Shown: positions 16,184 to 31,510 of the stretch, in pieces
How the letters are laid out: every line of letters begins with the position of its first letter
Position numbering within the stretch: position 1 is the stretch's first letter
Source of the DNA: an uncultured Oscillibacter sp.
Lineage (GTDB): Bacteria > Bacillota > Clostridia > Oscillospirales > Oscillospiraceae
Length of the DNA: 64,000 nucleotides
NCBI RefSeq assembly: GCF_947654275.1
Contig: NZ_CANTJS010000011.1
Coordinates: 1-64,000 of the forward strand
Direction of reading: 5' to 3'
Made by a program: the position numbers and the translations under genes
Notes under the pieces: generated by a model
Seen by the model: the letters and a program-made list of their open reading frames with translations, nothing else
Told to the model about the DNA's origin: nothing
Databases searched by the model: none

Positions 16184-16210
16184 TTATTTTCCCTGCCGAA
16201 GTGCCGATAA
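16184..16210 (+). promoter_or_regulatory. possible sigma-28 (SigD/FliA) type promoter
   Basis: The exact -10 motif GCCGATAA of flagellar sigma factors is at 16203-16210. The -35 position holds TTAT rather than TAAA. It lies about 100 bases before a gene encoding flagellin-like termini, which makes the partial match worth noting. Confidence 0.4.
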
Positions 16211-16274: not shown

Positions 16275-16312
16275 GAAAGAAAGCGGAAGTTCTGGCGAAG
16301 GGGGCGTGTTCA

Positions 16313-19306
16313 ATGAGTGAGCTGAGGATACAGAGGAACCGGGGATTTGCCGTGGCCCGGCGGCAGACCGCCGGACGGACGGAGAAAACCGCCGGCAGCC
16401 AGCCGGTCCGGGAGAAGACGGGGCTGAACGTCTCGGAGACTCTGCGGCAGCTGCTGACCAGGGCCGGACAGGCGGAGCAGCAGATTCGGGAGAGCCGCCG
16501 GACGCTTCAGACTGGGGAGAGCGCCCTGGCGGCGGCGGGGGACAGTCTGGGGCGAATGGCCGAGACGGCCCGGCAGGCCGCCGCCGGAGGGGACCCCGAC
16601 GCCCTTCAGACGGAGTTTCATCGGCTGGTGGAGGAGATCGACCGCATTTTGAGCAGCGCCGTGTCCGGCGGGACCCGGCTGTTTCTGGACGGCGAGGGGG
16701 ACGGAGCCGACGGCCTTCTGGCCGCCATCGCGGAGGCGTCCTCCGGCGGACAGCCGGAAAAGCCCCTGCCGGACTGGCTGGCGGAGGCCCTGGGGCAGAA
16801 GGACCTGACCCCGGAGAAGATTTTGTCCGCCCTGGGGCTGGACCAGAGCGCCGGCGCGGCGGACATCCTGGCGGCGCTGATGGACCGGCCCCTGGAAAAC
16901 GGCGGAGCCGCCGCCTATCTGGCGGCGCTGTATCTGGGGTCCGTCATCGCCGGAGCGCCGGAGGACCCGGCGGCGGCGCTGGAGGGCCTGGGGCAGCTGC
17001 TGGAGAAAATGGGCGAGGGCCTGTCGGTGGACGAAGCTGTGGAGGAGCTGACCCATGGGACCTTTACCAGTCTGGAGGACTTTCAGGCCCAGTTTACCGG
17101 CGGCACGGCGCCGGGGATGGAGACCTTTATGACGAATCTGCTGCTGACGGGGGAGACCGTGACCCTGATGGACCTGGAAGTCCTGCTGGCCCTCCTGTCC
17201 CAGATGGGACGCATGGACCTGGACATGGCCCTGCTGAGCCTGCTGGATCAGCTGGAGCTTCACCAGACACTCGGAGCCGGGCCGGAGCCGGAGCCCATGA
17301 ACGGGCGGTCGAACCCGGCGGCGGCAGGGGAGGCCGCAGGCGGCGGAAAGACCGCCGTCCTGGACTGCGGCCCGGTCCGGGTGCTGGGCCGGGATCTCTC
17401 CGCCGTGTCCTGGGATGAGGGGACGGGAGTGCTGACCGTGAAGGGAACGGCGGTGCTGCTGGGAACCGGGGAGGAGCTGCCCGTCCTCCGGCTGGCGGGA
17501 GGCGGAACGGTGACCCTCCAGAACGTGCGGGCGGCGGTGCTGCATACGGATGGTCAGTCTCAGGCGGCGGTCTTCGGCAGGAATGTGCTGGGAGAAATCC
17601 GCATGGGGCCGGGGGCCGGCCTGACGCTGGAGGGCGGCGGCTTCGTCCGTATCGGCGGGCTGCGGGGCGGCGCCTCCAACACGCTGCGCCTGACCGGCGG
17701 CGGAGCGGTGCTGGCGGAGGACCCGGAGAAGGAAACGCCGCCGGTCCGCGTGATTCTGGAGGGCCCCGTGTCACTGGCGGCGGGAAGCGGGGCTGTTGTC
17801 AGCGGGCCCAAAGGGGCCGCGCTGAAGCCCTTTGACGTGATTTGGAAGACCCTGCTTCCGGGCTGGGCCGCGGTCACCTCCATGGAGGCCGGCGGGCGGC
17901 AGGTGAAAACGGCTCTGCTGAACGGCGACCCCGCGCGGCTGTGGCTGGACCGGGGAGACCGGGGCGCTCCGGTCCACGTTCTGGTTCTGCGGGGCAGGGA
18001 CGCCAACGGGCAGCCGAAAACCCGGTATGCCTATCTGCACTGGAACCAGCACACCGGGTGCTTTGAGGAGTGCTCCATGTACCCCAACCCCTTCGCGGTG
18101 ACCGGCGGCGAGGCGGGCCGGGACTGGACCTATGAGGAGCACACCCACACGCTGTGCATCCGCTCCAGCCGGGTGACGGGCATCTCCGGCGGACGGGGGA
18201 CGGACAGCAATCAGACCCCCTTCAGCGGCAGAATTGCCCTGGACGACGGCATCGGGACCCTGGCGCTGGCCCTGGGGGGCGTGGTGTGCCGGGTGTCCCA
18301 GGGCCGGGCCTTCAGTCTGGGCCGGGGGAACGACGTGACGCTGACCCTGGAGAGCGGAAGCCGGAACCTCTTTGAGAGCGGCGAGGGCTGCGCGGGCCTG
18401 TCCCTGGGGGAGGGCACCTCCCTTCGGATTGACCGGGGCGAATCCGCCGGCGGCGGCAGAACGCCGGAGGGGAGCCTCACCGCCATCGGCAGGGGCGGCG
18501 GGGCCGGCATCGGACGGGACAGCGGCGGCAGCCGGGACCAGACCAGCCGGATTCTGATTCGGGGCGGCGCAGTGACCGCCGCCGGACACGGAGGCGGTGC
18601 GGGCATCGGCGCGGGAAAGAACGGAACCATGGGCCCGGTGACCATACTGGGGGGCACGGTGGAGTCTACCGGAGAGAAGGGCGGCGGGGCCGGCATCGGC
18701 GGCGGCCTGGGGGCCGCTGTGGGCAGCATCAGCATCCAGGGCGGAAAGATTACCGCCATGGCCGCCGGACACGCCGCCGCCATCGGCGCAGGCGTCCAGG
18801 GGGCCTGCGGCGACATCCGGATTGCCGGAACCGCCCGGATTGTCAAGGCTCTGGGAGGCGACCCCGGGGCGGACATCGGGGCCTGTCTGTTCGGCGGCTG
18901 CGGGACGGTGCAGGTGTCCGCCGACATCGGAAACGCCCGGCTGCGGACCCGGAGCGGCATTTCCCTGAAGGCAGGGGAGCACACCGTGACGCTGCCCCAG
19001 TTCCGCCTTTCCGCCGCGGCACTGGGGCTGGACCGGCTGTCCCTGGCTACCCGGGAAGAGGCCCGGGCCGCTCAGGCGGCCATTGACGCGGGACGCCGCT
19101 GGGTAGCCGGGGTGCAGTCCGCCTACGGCGCACTGTACGGCCAGCTGGGCGGCTCCGGCAGTCTCTGGCCCTCCGCCGGCGGCGGGCTGCTGCGGAACAC
19201 GGTGGACGCCGGGGCGTTGCTGCGGGAGCTGAGAGAGGCCATTGCCCTCCAGACCCCCGGGCTGACAGGCGGGGAACGGGAGCAGGTGCGGCAGCTGCTG
19301 CGGTGA
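16313..19306 (+). CDS. flagellin-like chimera with giant beta-rich, glycine-repeat insert
   Basis: 997 residues, no signal peptide. Residues about 40-130 follow flagellin D0/D1: an Ala/Gln-rich coil, then LQTGESALAAAGDSLGRM, ALQTEFHRLVEEIDRI and GGTRLFLDG. The C-terminus also matches flagellin: LSAAALGLDRLSLATREEA, AIDAG...YGALYGQLG and the terminal EQVRQLLR. Between them, about 800 residues contain an alpha-helical stretch, beta-strand repeats of carbohydrate-binding-domain type and repeated GGGAGIGxG turns suggestive of a beta-helix. If assembled, the insert would be displayed on the filament surface; the lack of a signal peptide fits export by the flagellar type III apparatus. No other flagellar gene is in the window. 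Confidence 0.65.
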   Translation: MSELRIQRNRGFAVARRQTAGRTEKTAGSQPVREKTGLNVSETLRQLLTRAGQAEQQIRESRRTLQTGESALAAAGDSLGRMAETARQAAAGGDPDALQTEFHRLVEEIDRILSSAVSGGTRLFLDGEGDGADGLLAAIAEASSGGQPEKPLPDWLAEALGQKDLTPEKILSALGLDQSAGAADILAALMDRPLENGGAAAYLAALYLGSVIAGAPEDPAAALEGLGQLLEKMGEGLSVDEAVEELTHGTFTSLEDFQAQFTGGTAPGMETFMTNLLLTGETVTLMDLEVLLALLSQMGRMDLDMALLSLLDQLELHQTLGAGPEPEPMNGRSNPAAAGEAAGGGKTAVLDCGPVRVLGRDLSAVSWDEGTGVLTVKGTAVLLGTGEELPVLRLAGGGTVTLQNVRAAVLHTDGQSQAAVFGRNVLGEIRMGPGAGLTLEGGGFVRIGGLRGGASNTLRLTGGGAVLAEDPEKETPPVRVILEGPVSLAAGSGAVVSGPKGAALKPFDVIWKTLLPGWAAVTSMEAGGRQVKTALLNGDPARLWLDRGDRGAPVHVLVLRGRDANGQPKTRYAYLHWNQHTGCFEECSMYPNPFAVTGGEAGRDWTYEEHTHTLCIRSSRVTGISGGRGTDSNQTPFSGRIALDDGIGTLALALGGVVCRVSQGRAFSLGRGNDVTLTLESGSRNLFESGEGCAGLSLGEGTSLRIDRGESAGGGRTPEGSLTAIGRGGGAGIGRDSGGSRDQTSRILIRGGAVTAAGHGGGAGIGAGKNGTMGPVTILGGTVESTGEKGGGAGIGGGLGAAVGSISIQGGKITAMAAGHAAAIGAGVQGACGDIRIAGTARIVKALGGDPGADIGACLFGGCGTVQVSADIGNARLRTRSGISLKAGEHTVTLPQFRLSAAALGLDRLSLATREEARAAQAAIDAGRRWVAGVQSAYGALYGQLGGSGSLWPSAGGGLLRNTVDAGALLRELREAIALQTPGLTGGEREQVRQLLR

Positions 19307-25917: not shown

Positions 25918-27492
25918 TTAGTCGGTTTCCAGCTGTTTGAATCGGAATTTGATGATGATTTGTTTATCCGTGGTCAGCTCCACCCGTTCGATGAGGCTGA
26001 CCAGCAGCTCCCGGTTGGCGGAGGCGGTTTCCAGGAACCGCTCCGTCAATTTCTTTGCCAGATCCATTTGCTCTGCCGGGGAGTAGTCCGGGTGGTCCAA
26101 CTGGTTGAGCCGCTGCTCTAGAGCGGTCCGGTCGGCCTTGACCTTGGCGTAGATGCGCTGGAAGTCGGCCTCGTCCAGGACGCCGCCCAGCTTATCCATG
26201 TAGACCTTGTCCAGGTGGGCGGTCAGGCTGTCGATTTTGGCTTTGAGGGAGTTGATCTCCTTTTCGTTGTCTGCCTCGGCAATGGCTTTGGCCACCGCCC
26301 TCTGTGCCTGGGGCAGAAGCTGGTCCGCTTGCAGATAGGCCCCGCAGACCTCCCGTACTTTTTCGACTACCGCTTGGGTGACGGTTTCCTCCTTGATGGT
26401 GTGGCTGGTACAGACCCCCGCCTTGGTGAACCGCTGGTAGGTCCGACAAACAAAGTACAGCCGGTCCTCCCCTGCCGCATTCTTGCGGTTCAGCACCGCC
26501 AGCGGATAGCCGCACTCGTGGCAAAAGATCAGTCCCTTGAGCAGAAAGTCGTAAGTGCGACTGCGTGTATGCTTCCGGCTGTTAACCAGTGCCCGCACCT
26601 TGTCGAAAGTTTCCCGGTCAATGATGGGTTCGTGGGTACCCTCCACAACGATCCAGTCCCGTCTGTCCTGCTTGATGCACTTCTTGGATTTGTAATTGAT
26701 CTTCCGAGTGCGGCCCTGCACCATGCTCCCGATATAGGTCTCATTTTGCAGCATATCGGAAATGCGTTCGCTGCTCCACAAGCCGGTGTAAGGGCCGGGA
26801 TTGGCTACAGGCAGTCCGGCGTAGGTGGCGGGGGTGGGGACTCCCTCGTTGTTCAGCTGGGCAGCGATTTGGCGGCAGCTTATTCCCTCCAAGGCCATGC
26901 CAAAAATACGCCGGACCATTGGGGCTACGTCCTCGTCAATGACAATCCTGTTCTTCTCTGTGGGGTGCATCTTATAGCCATAGACCGGCTTGCCACCGAT
27001 GAACAGGCCCTTGCGCTGCTTGTCGTGCTTGACGCTGGAAATCTTCTTGGAGATGTCCTTGGCGTACATATCGTTCATGATAGCGCGGAAGGGTGTGATG
27101 TCGTTGGCGGTGGAGTCCACCCCGGTGTCGATGCCGTCCAGTAGGGAGATGTAGCGTACCCGGTGCTCGGGGAAGTACCGCTCCATGTAGTGGCCGGTCA
27201 GGATGTAGTCACGACCCAGACGGCTCAGGTCCTTGGTAATGACCATGTTGACCTTCCGGGCCTCAATGTCGGCAATCATGCGCTGGAAATTCGGGCGGTC
27301 GAAGTTCGTACCGCTCCAGCCGTCATCGATGTATGTGTCATAAACGCTAAGCCGATGCTGCTGGACAAATTCATTGAGCAGGGATTGCTGGTTGTTGACG
27401 CTCTCGGATGGGCCCTCGTTCTCATCCTCCTTTGATAATCTGATGTATAATGCCGCATGGTAGTCCATGGGGTTGCTTATCTCTAAATACAT
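25918..27492 (-). CDS. large serine recombinase of element B
   Basis: 524 residues from ATG behind GGAGGTACGAT. The N-terminal resolvase domain has the catalytic serine in LYIRLSKEDE and the conserved KDLSRLGRDY region. A recombinase domain (GKPVYGYKMHPTEKN...) and a zinc-ribbon domain (GLIFCHECGYPLAV; CRTYQRF...CTSH) follow, then a coiled coil near residues 410-480. It ends 23 bases from the element's inverted arm and reads toward the sigK 3' segment. It is the likely excisionase for element B, analogous to SpoIVCA of the Bacillus skin element. Confidence 0.92.
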   Translation of the reverse strand: MYLEISNPMDYHAALYIRLSKEDENEGPSESVNNQQSLLNEFVQQHRLSVYDTYIDDGWSGTNFDRPNFQRMIADIEARKVNMVITKDLSRLGRDYILTGHYMERYFPEHRVRYISLLDGIDTGVDSTANDITPFRAIMNDMYAKDISKKISSVKHDKQRKGLFIGGKPVYGYKMHPTEKNRIVIDEDVAPMVRRIFGMALEGISCRQIAAQLNNEGVPTPATYAGLPVANPGPYTGLWSSERISDMLQNETYIGSMVQGRTRKINYKSKKCIKQDRRDWIVVEGTHEPIIDRETFDKVRALVNSRKHTRSRTYDFLLKGLIFCHECGYPLAVLNRKNAAGEDRLYFVCRTYQRFTKAGVCTSHTIKEETVTQAVVEKVREVCGAYLQADQLLPQAQRAVAKAIAEADNEKEINSLKAKIDSLTAHLDKVYMDKLGGVLDEADFQRIYAKVKADRTALEQRLNQLDHPDYSPAEQMDLAKKLTERFLETASANRELLVSLIERVELTTDKQIIIKFRFKQLETD

Positions 27493-27531
27493 ATCGTACC
27501 TCCAGAGATAAGCGGCCATTCATCGTATGTA

Positions 27532-27672
27532 TCATACAATATAGTCTGGGTGGTTTGCAACGTTGTGAAGCTCCTTTTTGAGAAAAAGTTCTAAGGAATT
27601 TAAGATGATTTGCTGGACATCCGGTGCATCTTTCGTACAGAGAGTGATCACAGTCAACTCTTGCGGTTTCAC
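27532..27672 (-). CDS. small 46-residue protein upstream of the element B recombinase
   Basis: GTG start behind CAGGAGGTG; absent from the ORF track. The sequence runs KPQELTVITLCTKDAPDVQQ and ends in HPDYIV. It is acidic to neutral with a predicted helix in the middle. Its stop lies 40 bases before the recombinase start, so the two are co-transcribed. No family was recognised. Its position makes it a candidate recombination directionality factor or regulator, which is inference only. Confidence 0.6.
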   Translation of the reverse strand: MKPQELTVITLCTKDAPDVQQIILNSLELFLKKELHNVANHPDYIV

Positions 27673-27728
27673 GGAAACACCTCCTGATCTGAGATGTTAA
27701 ACTATATTCGCCGCCCCTGCGGAATAGC

Positions 27729-28115
27729 CTAAAGGTACGCCCGCAAATTCCTTTGCAGAGCAGTACAGTACTCGCGGAACAGTACCGGGTCAACCATGTG
27801 CTGAATGATTGCATAGGGCGGGAAGCACCTGTCCCATTCATACGCGGCATAAATCAAAGCCATCGTAGGGGTGTTTCCAACTTCATCTAAATTTTCTGCG
27901 ATTATTTGAAGAAATGCCTGCTGGTATCTGGCTGAAACTCTCTTCCGTGACACATAATGGATCAACGATCGTGCTCCGGCACGGGCATTTGCTTCGGCGG
28001 CATCCGAGGTCCAGGCACCGCGCTCCAAATCAATGCCGCTCAAACTGAGCGAATCAACAAAATCAGCGTGGTTCTCACGCAGAACCTTTTGGACCCTCAG
28101 TTCCATTAAATTCAT
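27729..28115 (-). CDS. hypothetical protein, 128 residues
   Basis: ATG behind GAAAGGACATG. The protein is mainly alpha-helical by eye (MELRVQKVLRENHADFVDSL; IHYVSRKRVSARYQQAFLQI) with no membrane segment or recognised motif. It lies upstream of, and on the same strand as, the small protein and recombinase of element B. No function is proposed. Confidence 0.65.
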   Translation of the reverse strand: MNLMELRVQKVLRENHADFVDSLSLSGIDLERGAWTSDAAEANARAGARSLIHYVSRKRVSARYQQAFLQIIAENLDEVGNTPTMALIYAAYEWDRCFPPYAIIQHMVDPVLFREYCTALQRNLRAYL

Positions 28116-28149
28116 AAAATCATGTCCTTTCGTTAAGTTTTACTTGTAT

Positions 28150-28187
28150 GAAAAAAGGCCCGCTCCTTGGAAGAGCAGACCTTTGAG
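28150..28187 (-). terminator. attenuator-like hairpin before the 128-residue gene
   Basis: On the minus strand AAAGGTCTGCTC pairs with GAGCGGGCCTTT and runs into TTTTTT. It lies about 40 bases before the start of the downstream gene, so it could attenuate expression of the recombinase-side operon. Confidence 0.5.
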
Positions 28188-28334
28188 AGCTATGCGTCGC
28201 AGCATATGGCTGATATTTTTTGTTTTTCCGTTTAGAAATATAATGAACGAGATGTATACACGCGACATCAGCAATTGTTTGCGCGTGTAACAAAGTTTTT
28301 GAAAAATTATTTTTGTGACTTTGGTGTAATAAAC

Positions 28335-28363
28335 TTGATTTGTGAGCATAAATATGATATGCT
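28335..28363 (+). promoter_or_regulatory. sigma-A promoter for the DUF4143 ATPase gene
   Basis: TTGATT and TATGCT with a 17-base spacer, 21 bases before the start codon region. Confidence 0.6.
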
Positions 28364-28383
28364 TAACCTAAAAGAGGACGGTG

Positions 28384-29700
28384 ATGATTATGCAAAAACC
28401 CATTCTGAAAAAGCGTGATCTTTATCTAAACCGTATGATAGCATTTCAAGACACTGAGATGATCAAAGTCATAACTGGAATTCGTCGTTGTGGAAAATCC
28501 AGTCTCATGAAACTGATGGCTCAGCACTTGCGTGAAAACGGCATAGCCCAGGATCAGATACTGGAAATGAACTTTGAGTCCATGAGCTTTCCTGATATGG
28601 ATGTCAGAGGCTTTTACGAATATGTGAAAGCCCGTATCCTGCCTGAGCAACGAATGTACTTGTTTTTTGACGAAGTGCAGAGAATCGCAGGTTGGGAAAA
28701 TGCTGTCAACTCCTTCCGTGTAGATTTTGACTGTGATATTTACATCACCGGTTCTAATGCCTATTTGCTTTCGTCTGAGTTGTCCACCTACCTTTCGGGT
28801 CGATATGTTGAGATCAAGGTACTCCCCCTTTCTTTTAAGGAGTTTTTAGATTTCCACGGCTACACCGTGACTGAAAAGAAATCGCCTACTGGAGCACTGA
28901 AGCGTCGGATCACAGACCAGGACGGCGATATTTACGATGAGCGGGAACTGTTCAATGAATATGCCCGGTTCGGTGGTATGCCTATGTTGGCAGATGTGGG
29001 TCTGGAAATTGACCGTGTAACAGCGGCGCTGGACGGAGTGTACTCCGCCGCTGTTGTCAACGATATTCTGGAGCGTGAAAAGCGGAAGGGTCGCCGTACC
29101 ATCACTGACCCGATCCTGCTCCGGAAAATTATCATGTTTTTGGCGGACAATATTGGCAACAACGTGTCGGCGACCTCTATTGGCAACACGCTGGTCAATG
29201 AGGGCCTGTTAGAAGAAAAAGGCCGCAGGAAACCTGCGGTGCATACCATCCAGAGTTATATTGAGGCATTACTGGAGGCGTATATCTTCTATGAGATCAA
29301 GCGATTCGACATTAAGGGTAAAGAGTATCTGCGGACGCTGGGAAAATACTATATCGTGGACATGGGCCTGCGGAACTATTTGTTAGGTTATCGGGATGGG
29401 GACAGTGGCCACATTCTGGAAAACATTATCTATTTTGAGCTACTAAGGCAGGGATATGATGTGGCCATTGGGAAGATTGACAACCAGGAAGTAGACTTTA
29501 TTGCCACAAAGGCGGATGAGAAGAAGTATATTCAGGTTACAGAGAACATGAACGCCCCAGAGACTAGGGATCGTGAACTTGCCCCATTGCGAAAAATCAG
29601 GGATAACTACGAAAAAATGGTGATTGCGTTGGATTGTGCTTTGACGCATACACAGGATGGGATTAAAATTATAAAAGCATTAGATTTCCTGTTATTTTAA
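28384..29700 (+). CDS. AAA-family ATPase with DUF4143 C-terminal domain
   Basis: 438 residues. Walker A GIRRCGKSSLM is near residue 32, Walker B YLFFDEVQRIAGWE near 96, sensor TGSNAYLLSSELSTYLSGRY follows, and a DUF4143-type C-terminus includes YYIVDMGLRNYLLG with a nuclease-like NQEVDFIA stretch. This family is common as stand-alone genes in bacteria and archaea and its role is unclear. GTG, ATG 28384 and ATG 28390 are all possible starts. The composition is more AT-rich than the chromosome around. Confidence 0.85.
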   Translation: MIMQKPILKKRDLYLNRMIAFQDTEMIKVITGIRRCGKSSLMKLMAQHLRENGIAQDQILEMNFESMSFPDMDVRGFYEYVKARILPEQRMYLFFDEVQRIAGWENAVNSFRVDFDCDIYITGSNAYLLSSELSTYLSGRYVEIKVLPLSFKEFLDFHGYTVTEKKSPTGALKRRITDQDGDIYDERELFNEYARFGGMPMLADVGLEIDRVTAALDGVYSAAVVNDILEREKRKGRRTITDPILLRKIIMFLADNIGNNVSATSIGNTLVNEGLLEEKGRRKPAVHTIQSYIEALLEAYIFYEIKRFDIKGKEYLRTLGKYYIVDMGLRNYLLGYRDGDSGHILENIIYFELLRQGYDVAIGKIDNQEVDFIATKADEKKYIQVTENMNAPETRDRELAPLRKIRDNYEKMVIALDCALTHTQDGIKIIKALDFLLF

Positions 29701-29741
29701 TCCATATAAATGAAATTAGATATATATACTTTCAACTCTAG

Positions 29742-30583
29742 AGTCTGTTTTAAAACCGTCAAAGTAACCAGATAAGGATACAGGCAAGACAGACAACAGC
29801 ACGGAAATAAAGAGCTTTCTTCTCGTATCTGGTGGCGAAGCGGCGGTTGTTTTTCAGTTTGTGGAACAGATTTTCAACCAGATGGCGTTCTTTGTAAGTA
29901 TACCAGTCAGTTTTTCTGGGATGCCTGGCGGTGATACGGCTTGGAATTACTGCAATTCCGCCCCGTTCCTCCAACCAACGCACAAACTTATCGCTGTCAT
30001 AGCCTTTATCTGCCAATATGAGTTTGCCATTCAGATCAAAGGGCTCCAACAGCGCCTGTGCCATACAGATATCATTTCGGTTCCCACTGGAGAGCAAAAA
30101 GCGCAATGGATTCCCAAGCCTATCCGTCACCGCATGGACTTTCGTGGTTAAGCCCCCTCTGCTCCGTCCGGTTTCCTCGTGATATCCCCTTTTTTGCTCC
30201 CACTGGCGTGCTGGTGGACTTTGATCGTGGTGCTGTCCAGCATCAGCGTTGTTCCGTCCACCAAATCCTGCTCAATCAGGGCTGTGAGAATGTTTTCCCA
30301 TACTCCGGATTTTGTCCATGCCCGAAACCGGCTGTATACGCTTTGCCATGGCCCGAACCGATCTGGTAAATACCGCCATGGTATTCCGGTGTTCAGCCAA
30401 TACAGGATCCCGTTAAGCATTTCCCGGTTGCTTTTTCCTGGCCGCCCTCCTTGCGGTTTCTTTTCAGGCGGAAACTTATCCTTGATCCTATTCCATTGTT
30501 GTTCGCTTATTTCATGTCTTTTCATGTGCTTTATTTTATCATCTTTGTGCTTTGCACACAATATCTAAGTTTTAAAACAGACG
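29742..30583 (-). mobile_element. IS5-family (IS427-like) insertion sequence
   Basis: 842 bp. Terminal inverted repeats GTCTGTTTTAAAAC / GTTTTAAAACAGAC are perfect over 14 bases. A CTAG sequence flanks both ends (29738-29741 and 30584-30587), consistent with a target duplication. It contains a two-frame transposase. Confidence 0.9.
29759..30525 (-). CDS. IS5-family transposase, two overlapping frames
   Basis: The upstream frame starts MKRHEISEQQWNRIKDKF and holds the first catalytic Asp region (LMLDSTTIKVHQHA). The downstream frame has ILADKGYDSDKF and the YKERHLVENLFHKLK block with the catalytic Glu. The frames meet at an A6G run (AGCAAAAAAGG), a classic -1 slippery site used by IS427-group elements, so this is probably programmed frameshifting and not damage. 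The ends of the element are intact, so it may be active. Confidence 0.85.
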
Positions 30584-30696
30584 CTAGCTATTAGAATATT
30601 TGCTATAGCTATTCAGAGTCTCTGTAAATAAGGTTATTTCGAATATTGACCGAATATGCCTTGAGATTCCTAACATGCTTACTAGGATGTGAATGG

Positions 30697-31510
30697 ATGC
30701 AGCCCTTTTTAAAATGGCCAGGTGGGAAACGATGGTTTGTCGCCAATTATTGCCGAATATTTCCCCAAGAATATAACGCATATTTTGAGCCGTTTCTAGG
30801 TGGAGGTTCTGTGTTTTTCTATCTTATGCCACAACAAGCTACGATTTCGGATATAAATTCTGATTTAATAAATATATACTGTGTTATGGCTAATAATCCA
30901 TTGCGGCTAAAAGTACTAATGAGCGCATATCAAGAAAATCATTGTAAGGAGTATTACTACAATGTGCGAAGTGCTATTCCGGATGATCCAGTAGTGCGTG
31001 CAGCTCGATTTTTATATTTGAATAGAACGTGCTTTAATGGTACGTATCGTGTAAATCAGCATGGTGACTTTAATGTACCAATAGGTACTCGAAAATATTT
31101 TGTAGATGATATAGAAATATTTGAAGAATATTCTCGGGTTCTTCAAAATGCACGTATCCGATCACAGGATTTTGTAAAAACTATCCGAGATGCAGGAGAG
31201 GGAGATTTGAGCTTTGCAGACCCTCCTTATACCATTGCGCATAATCAGAACAGCTTTGATTAAATACAATGAAAGATTGTTTTCATGGAGAGACCAAACT
31301 CGATTATTAAATGCACTTGTGAGGGCTAGAGCACGTGGAGCAATCATTGTTGCAACCAATGCACTATATCTACAATTGGAACAGATGTATTTTGATTATG
31401 GTTTTTATACATATACGCTAAATAGATTTAGTTCAATATCGGGAAATGCAAATGGGCGTAAACGTCAAGAGGAACTTTTAATTACTTCATTTCCTGTGGA
31501 ATTGGAGTAG
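30697..31510 (+). pseudogene. dam: Dam-type DNA adenine methylase, frameshifted
   Basis: The first frame starts MQPFLKWPGGKRW (SAM-binding motif I, with FEPFLGGGSVFF) and reaches the catalytic DPPY motif, then stops at HNQNSFD. The next frame continues ALIKYNERLFSWRDQTRLL, where Dam proteins normally continue. Removing the G in CTTTGATTAAA joins the frames. It would methylate N6 of adenine, typically in GATC. Either real inactivation or a single-base sequence error; the site is not a long homopolymer. It heads the unknown operon downstream and is AT-rich. Confidence 0.8.

What the first reader, a model, noticed from the sequence alone, without database searches (positions are those of the whole stretch)
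16313..19306. Flagellin ends around an about 800-residue glycine-repeat insert
Both termini follow flagellin D0/D1 (SALAAAGDSLGRM, LVEEIDRI, GGTRLFLDG; LSAAALGLDRLSLATREEA and the final EQVRQLLR), while the middle is a beta-strand and GGGAGIG-repeat region with carbohydrate-binding-domain-like features. Enzymatic inserts are known in some flagellins; this kind of beta-helix-like insert seems different. It lies next to sugar-sensing and galactose-import genes, so a sugar- or mucin-binding filament is an attractive idea.
Basis: partly seen in the sequence, partly recalled or inferred. Interest (0 to 1): 0.75.

Follow-up and report, generated by a model that had tools for sequence, protein, structure and literature searches.

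The report
Protease-dead flagellin carrying beta-solenoid lectin-like insert
A gut bacterium makes a large flagellin-derived protein that has lost the protease of its enzymatic-flagellin ancestor and kept a sugar-binding-like beta-solenoid, which is now the best preserved part of the protein, so it probably works as an exported adhesin and not as a motility filament.

Summary
The 997-aa ORF has flagellin-type ends around a ~770-aa insert: the N-terminus passes the Pfam cut-off, and the C-terminus shows only in profile comparison. Orthologs occur in at least 9 other genomes from several genera, always with flagellar genes where tested.

The new point is descent. A 1238-aa relative (G034/L069) has intact flagellin ends, an HExxH metalloprotease (flagellinolysin type) and the same GGAGIG beta region. 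The window family aligns to it segment by segment (E 1e-13 to 1e-24). It lacks ~175 residues including HExxH in all 11 members, and its third zinc ligand is not conserved. It is therefore a catalytically dead descendant of a flagellinolysin.

The D0 ends are eroded, while the beta module is the best conserved part, the reverse of normal flagellins. A sigma-28-type promoter lies upstream of 10 of 11 members; the genome encodes FliA and FlhA. dN/dS is about 0.2.

The beta module's best structural match is Cthe_2159, a polysaccharide-binding beta-helix (weak). The sugar-gene neighbourhood is not conserved and is no evidence.

Most likely: a late flagellar gene product, exported by the flagellar machine, acting outside as a glycan-binding, non-motility flagellin. 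Export and binding are untested.

The parts
16184..16209 (+). sigma-28 (FliA)-type promoter TTAT-N15-GCCGATA
   Evidence: Same element 59-129 nt upstream of 10 of 11 family members (L035 has only a poor match); shuffles reached at most 4 of 11. Agrees with the published clostridial sigma-28 pattern TAAA-N16-17-MCGATAa (PMC3720852). FliA is in the genome.
16298..16304 (+). Shine-Dalgarno AAGGGGG, 8 nt before ATG
   Evidence: read directly from the sequence
16313..19306 (+). ORF, 997 aa: flagellinolysin-derived, protease-dead flagellin-like protein
16313..16420 (+). residues 1-36: degenerate N-terminal D0 segment, basic, Pro/Gly-rich, ~10 aa shorter than in true flagellins
   Evidence: alignment and composition
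16421..16690 (+). residues 37-126: flagellin D1 N-terminal helices
   Evidence: PF00669 above cut-off; profile to G034 protein E 1.4e-24
16691..16762 (+). residues 127-150: site where ~175 residues including HExxH are missing relative to the G034 protease-bearing relative
   Evidence: alignment; no HExxH in any of 11 members
16763..17152 (+). residues 151-280: remnant helical C-terminal subdomain of the flagellinolysin metalloprotease
   Evidence: NF033876 stretch at 199-275, all 9 orthologs match; profile to G034 protease region E 5.1e-16
17354..17827 (+). residues 348-505: beta-rich segment without a counterpart in the G034 relative
   Evidence: predicted strands (low confidence); no significant match to G034
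17828..18076 (+). residues 506-588: conserved intermediate segment
   Evidence: 52% mean pairwise identity
18077..18517 (+). residues 589-735: most conserved module, Cthe_2159-like beta-solenoid start
   Evidence: 64% mean pairwise identity; E 4.2e-13 to G034; PDB profile top hit 4peu E 0.0019
18518..18922 (+). residues 736-870: GGAGIG solenoid turns, variable in number
   Evidence: 36-137 residues long among orthologs; AF2 pLDDT about 65-81 over most of residues 669-840
19004..19153 (+). residues 898-947: flagellin D1 C-terminal helix
   Evidence: C segment profile 871-997: E 9.5e-20 to G034, 7.5e-10 to own flagellin
19154..19303 (+). residues 948-997: degenerate C-terminal D0 ending in VRQLLR
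   Evidence: alignment; 36% mean identity

Best explanation
Shown: this is one member of a conserved family of flagellin-derived proteins in Oscillospirales. The family shares ancestry with a protease-bearing flagellin that also carries a GGAGIG beta-solenoid. The protease half with HExxH is gone, the remaining helical half is kept, both D0 ends are eroded, and the beta module is the most conserved part. Inferred: the gene is switched on by sigma-28 together with late flagellar genes. The protein leaves the cell through the flagellar export apparatus using its flagellin-type termini, and works outside as a glycan-binding adhesin or lectin (released, or held at the filament surface or tip) without being a main filament subunit. 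The solenoid would bind an acidic or plant-type polysaccharide or mucin, as Cthe_2159 binds cellulose and polygalacturonate.
For: Flagellin ends. Segment-by-segment homology to the HExxH-bearing G034 protein (sequence). NF033876 flagellinolysin model hits all 9 orthologs. No HExxH in 11 of 11, and the third zinc ligand position reads E/K/A/K/E/Q/N/E/G/W. sigma-28-type promoter in 10 of 11; FliA in genome. All 8 carriers among 201 family genomes have FlhA, which 44 of 201 have (p 3e-6, not corrected for relatedness); two congeners without FlhA also lack the gene. dN/dS 0.011/0.051. Conservation inverted: beta module 64%, D1 46-47%, D0 36-39%. Cthe_2159 is the best structural lead by two routes; its sugar binding is reported in PMC6712302.
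Against: No expression, export or binding data. The Cthe_2159 match is weak (E 0.0019 with compositional bias; fold E 0.73; Pfam PF14262 not hit). The three true flagellin genes of the same genome lack this promoter element within 300 nt, so sigma-28 control is supported by phylogenetic footprint only. AF2 models are low confidence because relatives outside the permitted set could not be used. Only one protease-bearing relative was found.
Confidence: 0.55

Rival explanations
1. It is a minor subunit that co-assembles into the filament, so the filament is studded with beta-solenoids, as C. [quoted passage not shown]
For: D1 segments are kept at both ends; the C-terminal RD..A..LL and final LLR pattern persists; the precedent for mixed filaments is PMC5595980.
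Against: D0 at both ends is shortened or non-amphipathic in all members, N-terminal Pro/Gly 4-9 against 1-3 in true flagellins, and D0 is the least conserved part; the CD1-CD0 linker of the window protein is deleted.
Confidence: 0.25
2. It is a decaying relic of a flagellinolysin without function.
For: Lost active site and eroded D0.
Against: Full-length open frames in 10 genomes of several genera, dN/dS about 0.2, a conserved promoter and a strongly conserved beta module.
Confidence: 0.05
3. It stays inside the cell and acts as a late flagellar regulator or chaperone decoy (FliS, FliW or CsrA pathway) through its flagellin-like ends.
For: Flagellin-like ends without polymerisation features; sigma-28-type promoter.
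Against: A ~770-aa insert with a beta-solenoid whose relatives elsewhere lie in secreted S-layer-anchored proteins (L070: signal-like N-terminus and SLH domains) fits an extracellular role better.
Confidence: 0.07
4. The resemblance to flagellinolysin arose separately: an ordinary flagellin independently received a helical domain and a beta-solenoid.
For: Only one protease-bearing relative with the same beta module was found in 201 family genomes, and none in the 394-genome order sample.
Against: Order and identity of all segments match (N, protease C-half, beta module, C) with E 1e-13 to 1e-24, and N and C ends are closer to the G034 protein than to the genome's own flagellins (86 vs 58 bits, 70 vs 38 bits).
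Confidence: 0.06

Closest known systems
Flagellinolysin (proteolytic flagellins, NCBIfam NF033876; Eckhard 2017 PMC5595980, PMC7643111)
   Same: Flagellin ends around an insert; the helical second half of the metalloprotease is recognisable in all members; one relative (G034) still has HExxH plus the same beta module.
   Different: HExxH and about 175 residues gone, third zinc Glu not conserved, score 32 bits against a cut-off of 205, D0 eroded, large beta-solenoid added.
Giant flagellins with very large hypervariable regions (marine Gammaproteobacteria, cited in PMC7643111; the 842-1046-aa flagellins of this genome)
   Same: Long insert in the hypervariable region.
   Different: Those keep intact D0/D1 and variable inserts; here the ends are degenerate and the insert is the conserved part.
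FlaC of Campylobacter jejuni (secreted non-motility flagellin, PMC4863622)
   Same: A flagellin-derived protein that appears to have left motility; suggested to work as a secreted protein.
   Different: FlaC lacks the D2/D3 region; this protein has a ~770-aa insert. Secretion here is not tested.
Cthe_2159 (PF14262, PDB 4peu/4phb), polysaccharide-binding beta-helix
   Same: Best PDB match of the beta module by sequence profile and the highest-probability fold match.
   Different: Not hit by the Pfam model; GGAGIG turns, fused between flagellin ends instead of secreted alone.

Membership tests
Bacterial flagellin | Flagellin_N (PF00669) match over the curated cut-off | tested here: met
   28.9 vs 26.6 bits; 8 of 9 orthologs match at E<=5
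Bacterial flagellin | Flagellin_C (PF00700) match | tested here: not met
   No member hits PF00700, although profile comparison shows homology to flagellin C-termini
Bacterial flagellin | Intact amphipathic D0 helices needed for polymerisation | tested here: not met
   N-terminal D0 basic, Pro/Gly-rich and ~10 aa shorter; C-terminal D0 eroded
Bacterial flagellin | Assembly into the filament | not testable with these tools
   needs protein
Flagellinolysin | HExxH zinc motif between flagellin ends | tested here: not met
   absent in 11 of 11 members, present (HEMIH) in G034 relative
Flagellinolysin | Third zinc-binding Glu | tested here: not met
   position varies E/K/A/K/E/Q/N/E/G/W
Flagellinolysin | NF033876 score over cut-off (205 bits) | tested here: not met
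   32 bits
Flagellinolysin | Common ancestry of ends and protease C-half | tested here: met
   E 1.4e-24, 5.1e-16, 9.5e-20 to G034 protein; 9 of 9 match NF033876
Cthe_2159 carbohydrate-binding beta-helix | PF14262 match | tested here: not met
   no hit
Cthe_2159 carbohydrate-binding beta-helix | Sequence-profile or fold similarity to 4peu | tested here: inconclusive
   E 0.0019; fold prob 0.69, E 0.73
Cthe_2159 carbohydrate-binding beta-helix | Polysaccharide binding | not testable with these tools
   needs protein
Secreted non-motility flagellin (FlaC-like) | Export through the flagellar type III apparatus without a role in the filament | not testable with these tools
   only indirect: co-occurrence with FlhA, promoter

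The most novel reading that the evidence does not exclude
A class of flagellin-derived proteins that abandoned both motility and proteolysis and became flagellum-exported lectins: selection acts on the beta-solenoid insert while the flagellin ends survive only as an export and display handle.
Probability: 0.5. Interest if true: 0.75.

Novelty: new variant of a known kind. Interest (0 to 1): 0.6.

Why it matters
Enzymatic flagellins are known, and all those first described keep HExxH (PMC5595980). A conserved, protease-dead lineage with a retained helical half and a lectin-like solenoid shows that the flagellin scaffold can be repurposed again after an enzyme was inserted. It also gives a direct test of whether the flagellar export machine of gut commensals delivers adhesins. 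If the solenoid binds mucin or plant polysaccharide, it would give motile gut Oscillospiraceae a flagellum-linked means of attachment.

Tried and rejected
Sugar-gene neighbourhood as evidence of function: rejected, no shared neighbour in seven orthologous loci. FlgL/hook-associated protein: much weaker matches than flagellin, and the genome has its own FlgL. sigma-70 promoter: none found. Genome-wide count of the sigma-28-type motif: TWAW-N15-GCCGATA occurs 4 times, no more than its control (4); one lies before the flgM-flgN-flgK-flgL region on C4 and one before this gene; the other two have no evident flagellar gene nearby. So the footprint across orthologs, not the count, is the evidence. 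AF2 of the full protein failed (pLDDT 39); the C-terminal half gave a beta-solenoid at pLDDT about 65-81 over most of residues 669-840. Fold search in viral structures gave nothing significant. G050 and G158 matches are not flagellins (SLH-anchored GGAGIG protein; peptidase). G080 large flagellin has no protease motif or GGAGIG turns.

Full report
What is there. The ORF 16313-19306 (+) codes for 997 aa. Pfam Flagellin_N matches residues 37-124 above its cut-off. Flagellin_C is not hit, but a profile of nine orthologs finds solved flagellins with both ends (best E 7.3e-18; N stretch 1.5e-12, C stretch 1.4e-4), and its C segment matches this genome's own flagellins (E 7.5e-10 to 3.5e-8). Reversed sequences gave no match.

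Genome context. The genome (3.05 Mb, 93% complete) holds three intact large flagellins (926, 1046 and 842 aa), FlgK and FlgL, FlhA and FliA. The window gene is alone: upstream are two Peripla_BP_4 proteins, a sensor kinase, an AraC-type regulator and an ABC transporter; downstream are a thiamine transporter and a sigma-54 activator. None of these neighbours recurs at seven orthologous loci, so the sugar genes say nothing about function.

Orthologs. In 201 genomes of the family, eight carry a full-length ortholog (window included) at 41-57% identity by alignment. Two more occur in another family of the order, and two contigs with public names are from Oscillospiraceae MAGs (L037, 98% identical; L038 partial). 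All eight carriers in the 201 have FlhA, which 44 of 201 have (p 3e-6 by counting, not corrected for relatedness). The two congeners in the sample have neither.

Descent from a proteolytic flagellin. The flagellinolysin model NF033876 matches the window protein at residues 199-275 and all nine orthologs. One genome (G034) has a 1238-aa protein with complete Flagellin_N and Flagellin_C (130 and 92 bits), an HEMIH zinc motif and six GGAGIG turns. Profiles of the window family find it segment by segment: N end E 1.4e-24, helical part 5.1e-16, beta module 4.2e-13, GGAGIG part 3.5e-5, C end 9.5e-20. N and C ends score higher against it than against the genome's own flagellins. The window family is about 175 residues shorter exactly where HExxH lies, has no HExxH in any of 11 members, and does not conserve the third zinc Glu. 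Because flagellinolysins with HExxH occur in many phyla (PMC5595980), loss in this family is the simpler direction; that step is inference.

What selection keeps. Mean pairwise identity among members is 64% in residues 589-735, 50-54% in the protease remnant, the 506-588 segment and the GGAGIG part, 46-47% in D1, and 36-39% in D0. In ordinary flagellins the ends are conserved and the middle varies. The number of GGAGIG turns varies (that part is 36-137 residues long). dN/dS against the 98% identical relative is 0.011/0.051. The N-terminal D0 is basic and rich in Pro/Gly, and the C-terminal D0 has lost its regular pattern. This argues against a main filament subunit.

Expression. TTAT-N15-GCCGATA lies at 16184-16209. 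The same type of element lies 59-129 nt upstream of 10 of 11 members (L035 has only a poor match; G486 is a TTAA/GACGATG variant); shuffled upstream sequences reached at most 4 of 11. It agrees with published clostridial sigma-28 promoters (PMC3720852). A related element precedes the flgM-flgN-flgK-flgL region of this genome. The genome-wide count of the pattern is not above its control, and the three true flagellin genes do not have it within 300 nt.

The beta module. AF2 on the C-terminal 408 residues gives a beta-solenoid at pLDDT about 65-81 over most of residues 669-840. A profile of beta modules from the family, G034 and an SLH-anchored protein finds Cthe_2159 (4peu) first in the PDB at E 0.0019, and the fold search gives 4peu the highest probability, 0.69 (E 0.73). 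Cthe_2159 binds cellulose and polygalacturonate (PMC6712302). The same GGAGIG module occurs in a protein with SLH domains (L070), which fits a surface display module. A glycan-binding role is therefore the best lead but not shown.

Mechanism. Shown: ancestry, loss of the active site, conservation pattern, promoter footprint, co-occurrence. Inferred: FliA-dependent expression, export by the flagellar apparatus, extracellular glycan binding. The closest functional precedent is FlaC of Campylobacter, a flagellin-derived protein not needed for motility and predominantly secreted (PMC4863622). Co-assembly as a minor subunit remains the main rival.

Noticed in passing
L011:8938-10137 (-) and L012:3616-4761 (+), contigs C37 and C49 of the same genome: Two of the three large flagellin genes have a TnpB-like gene upstream on the same strand, with all three RuvC catalytic positions changed (D to Q or K, E to R, D to E). 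They look like TldR, the nuclease-dead RNA-guided flagellin repressors already reported from Oscillibacter (PMC13418256).
   Followed up: partly
L069:4005-7724 (genome G034): A 1239-codon ORF with intact flagellin ends, HExxH metalloprotease and six GGAGIG turns: an apparently active flagellinolysin with a beta-solenoid, the only one seen in 201 family genomes.
   Followed up: yes
L070:1491-4994 (genome G050): An SLH-domain surface protein that begins with the same GGAGIG beta module after a signal-like N-terminus.
   Followed up: partly
L013:4567-7095, L011:5233-8013, L012:5724-8864: Three flagellins of 842, 926 and 1046 aa with near-identical ends and unrelated middles in one genome; none has the sigma-28-type element within 300 nt.
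   Followed up: no
window 25918-31263: A cluster that looks mobile by sequence reading: recombinase-like ORF, transposase-like ORFs, an ATPase-like ORF and a DNA methylase-like ORF. Not searched.
   Followed up: no
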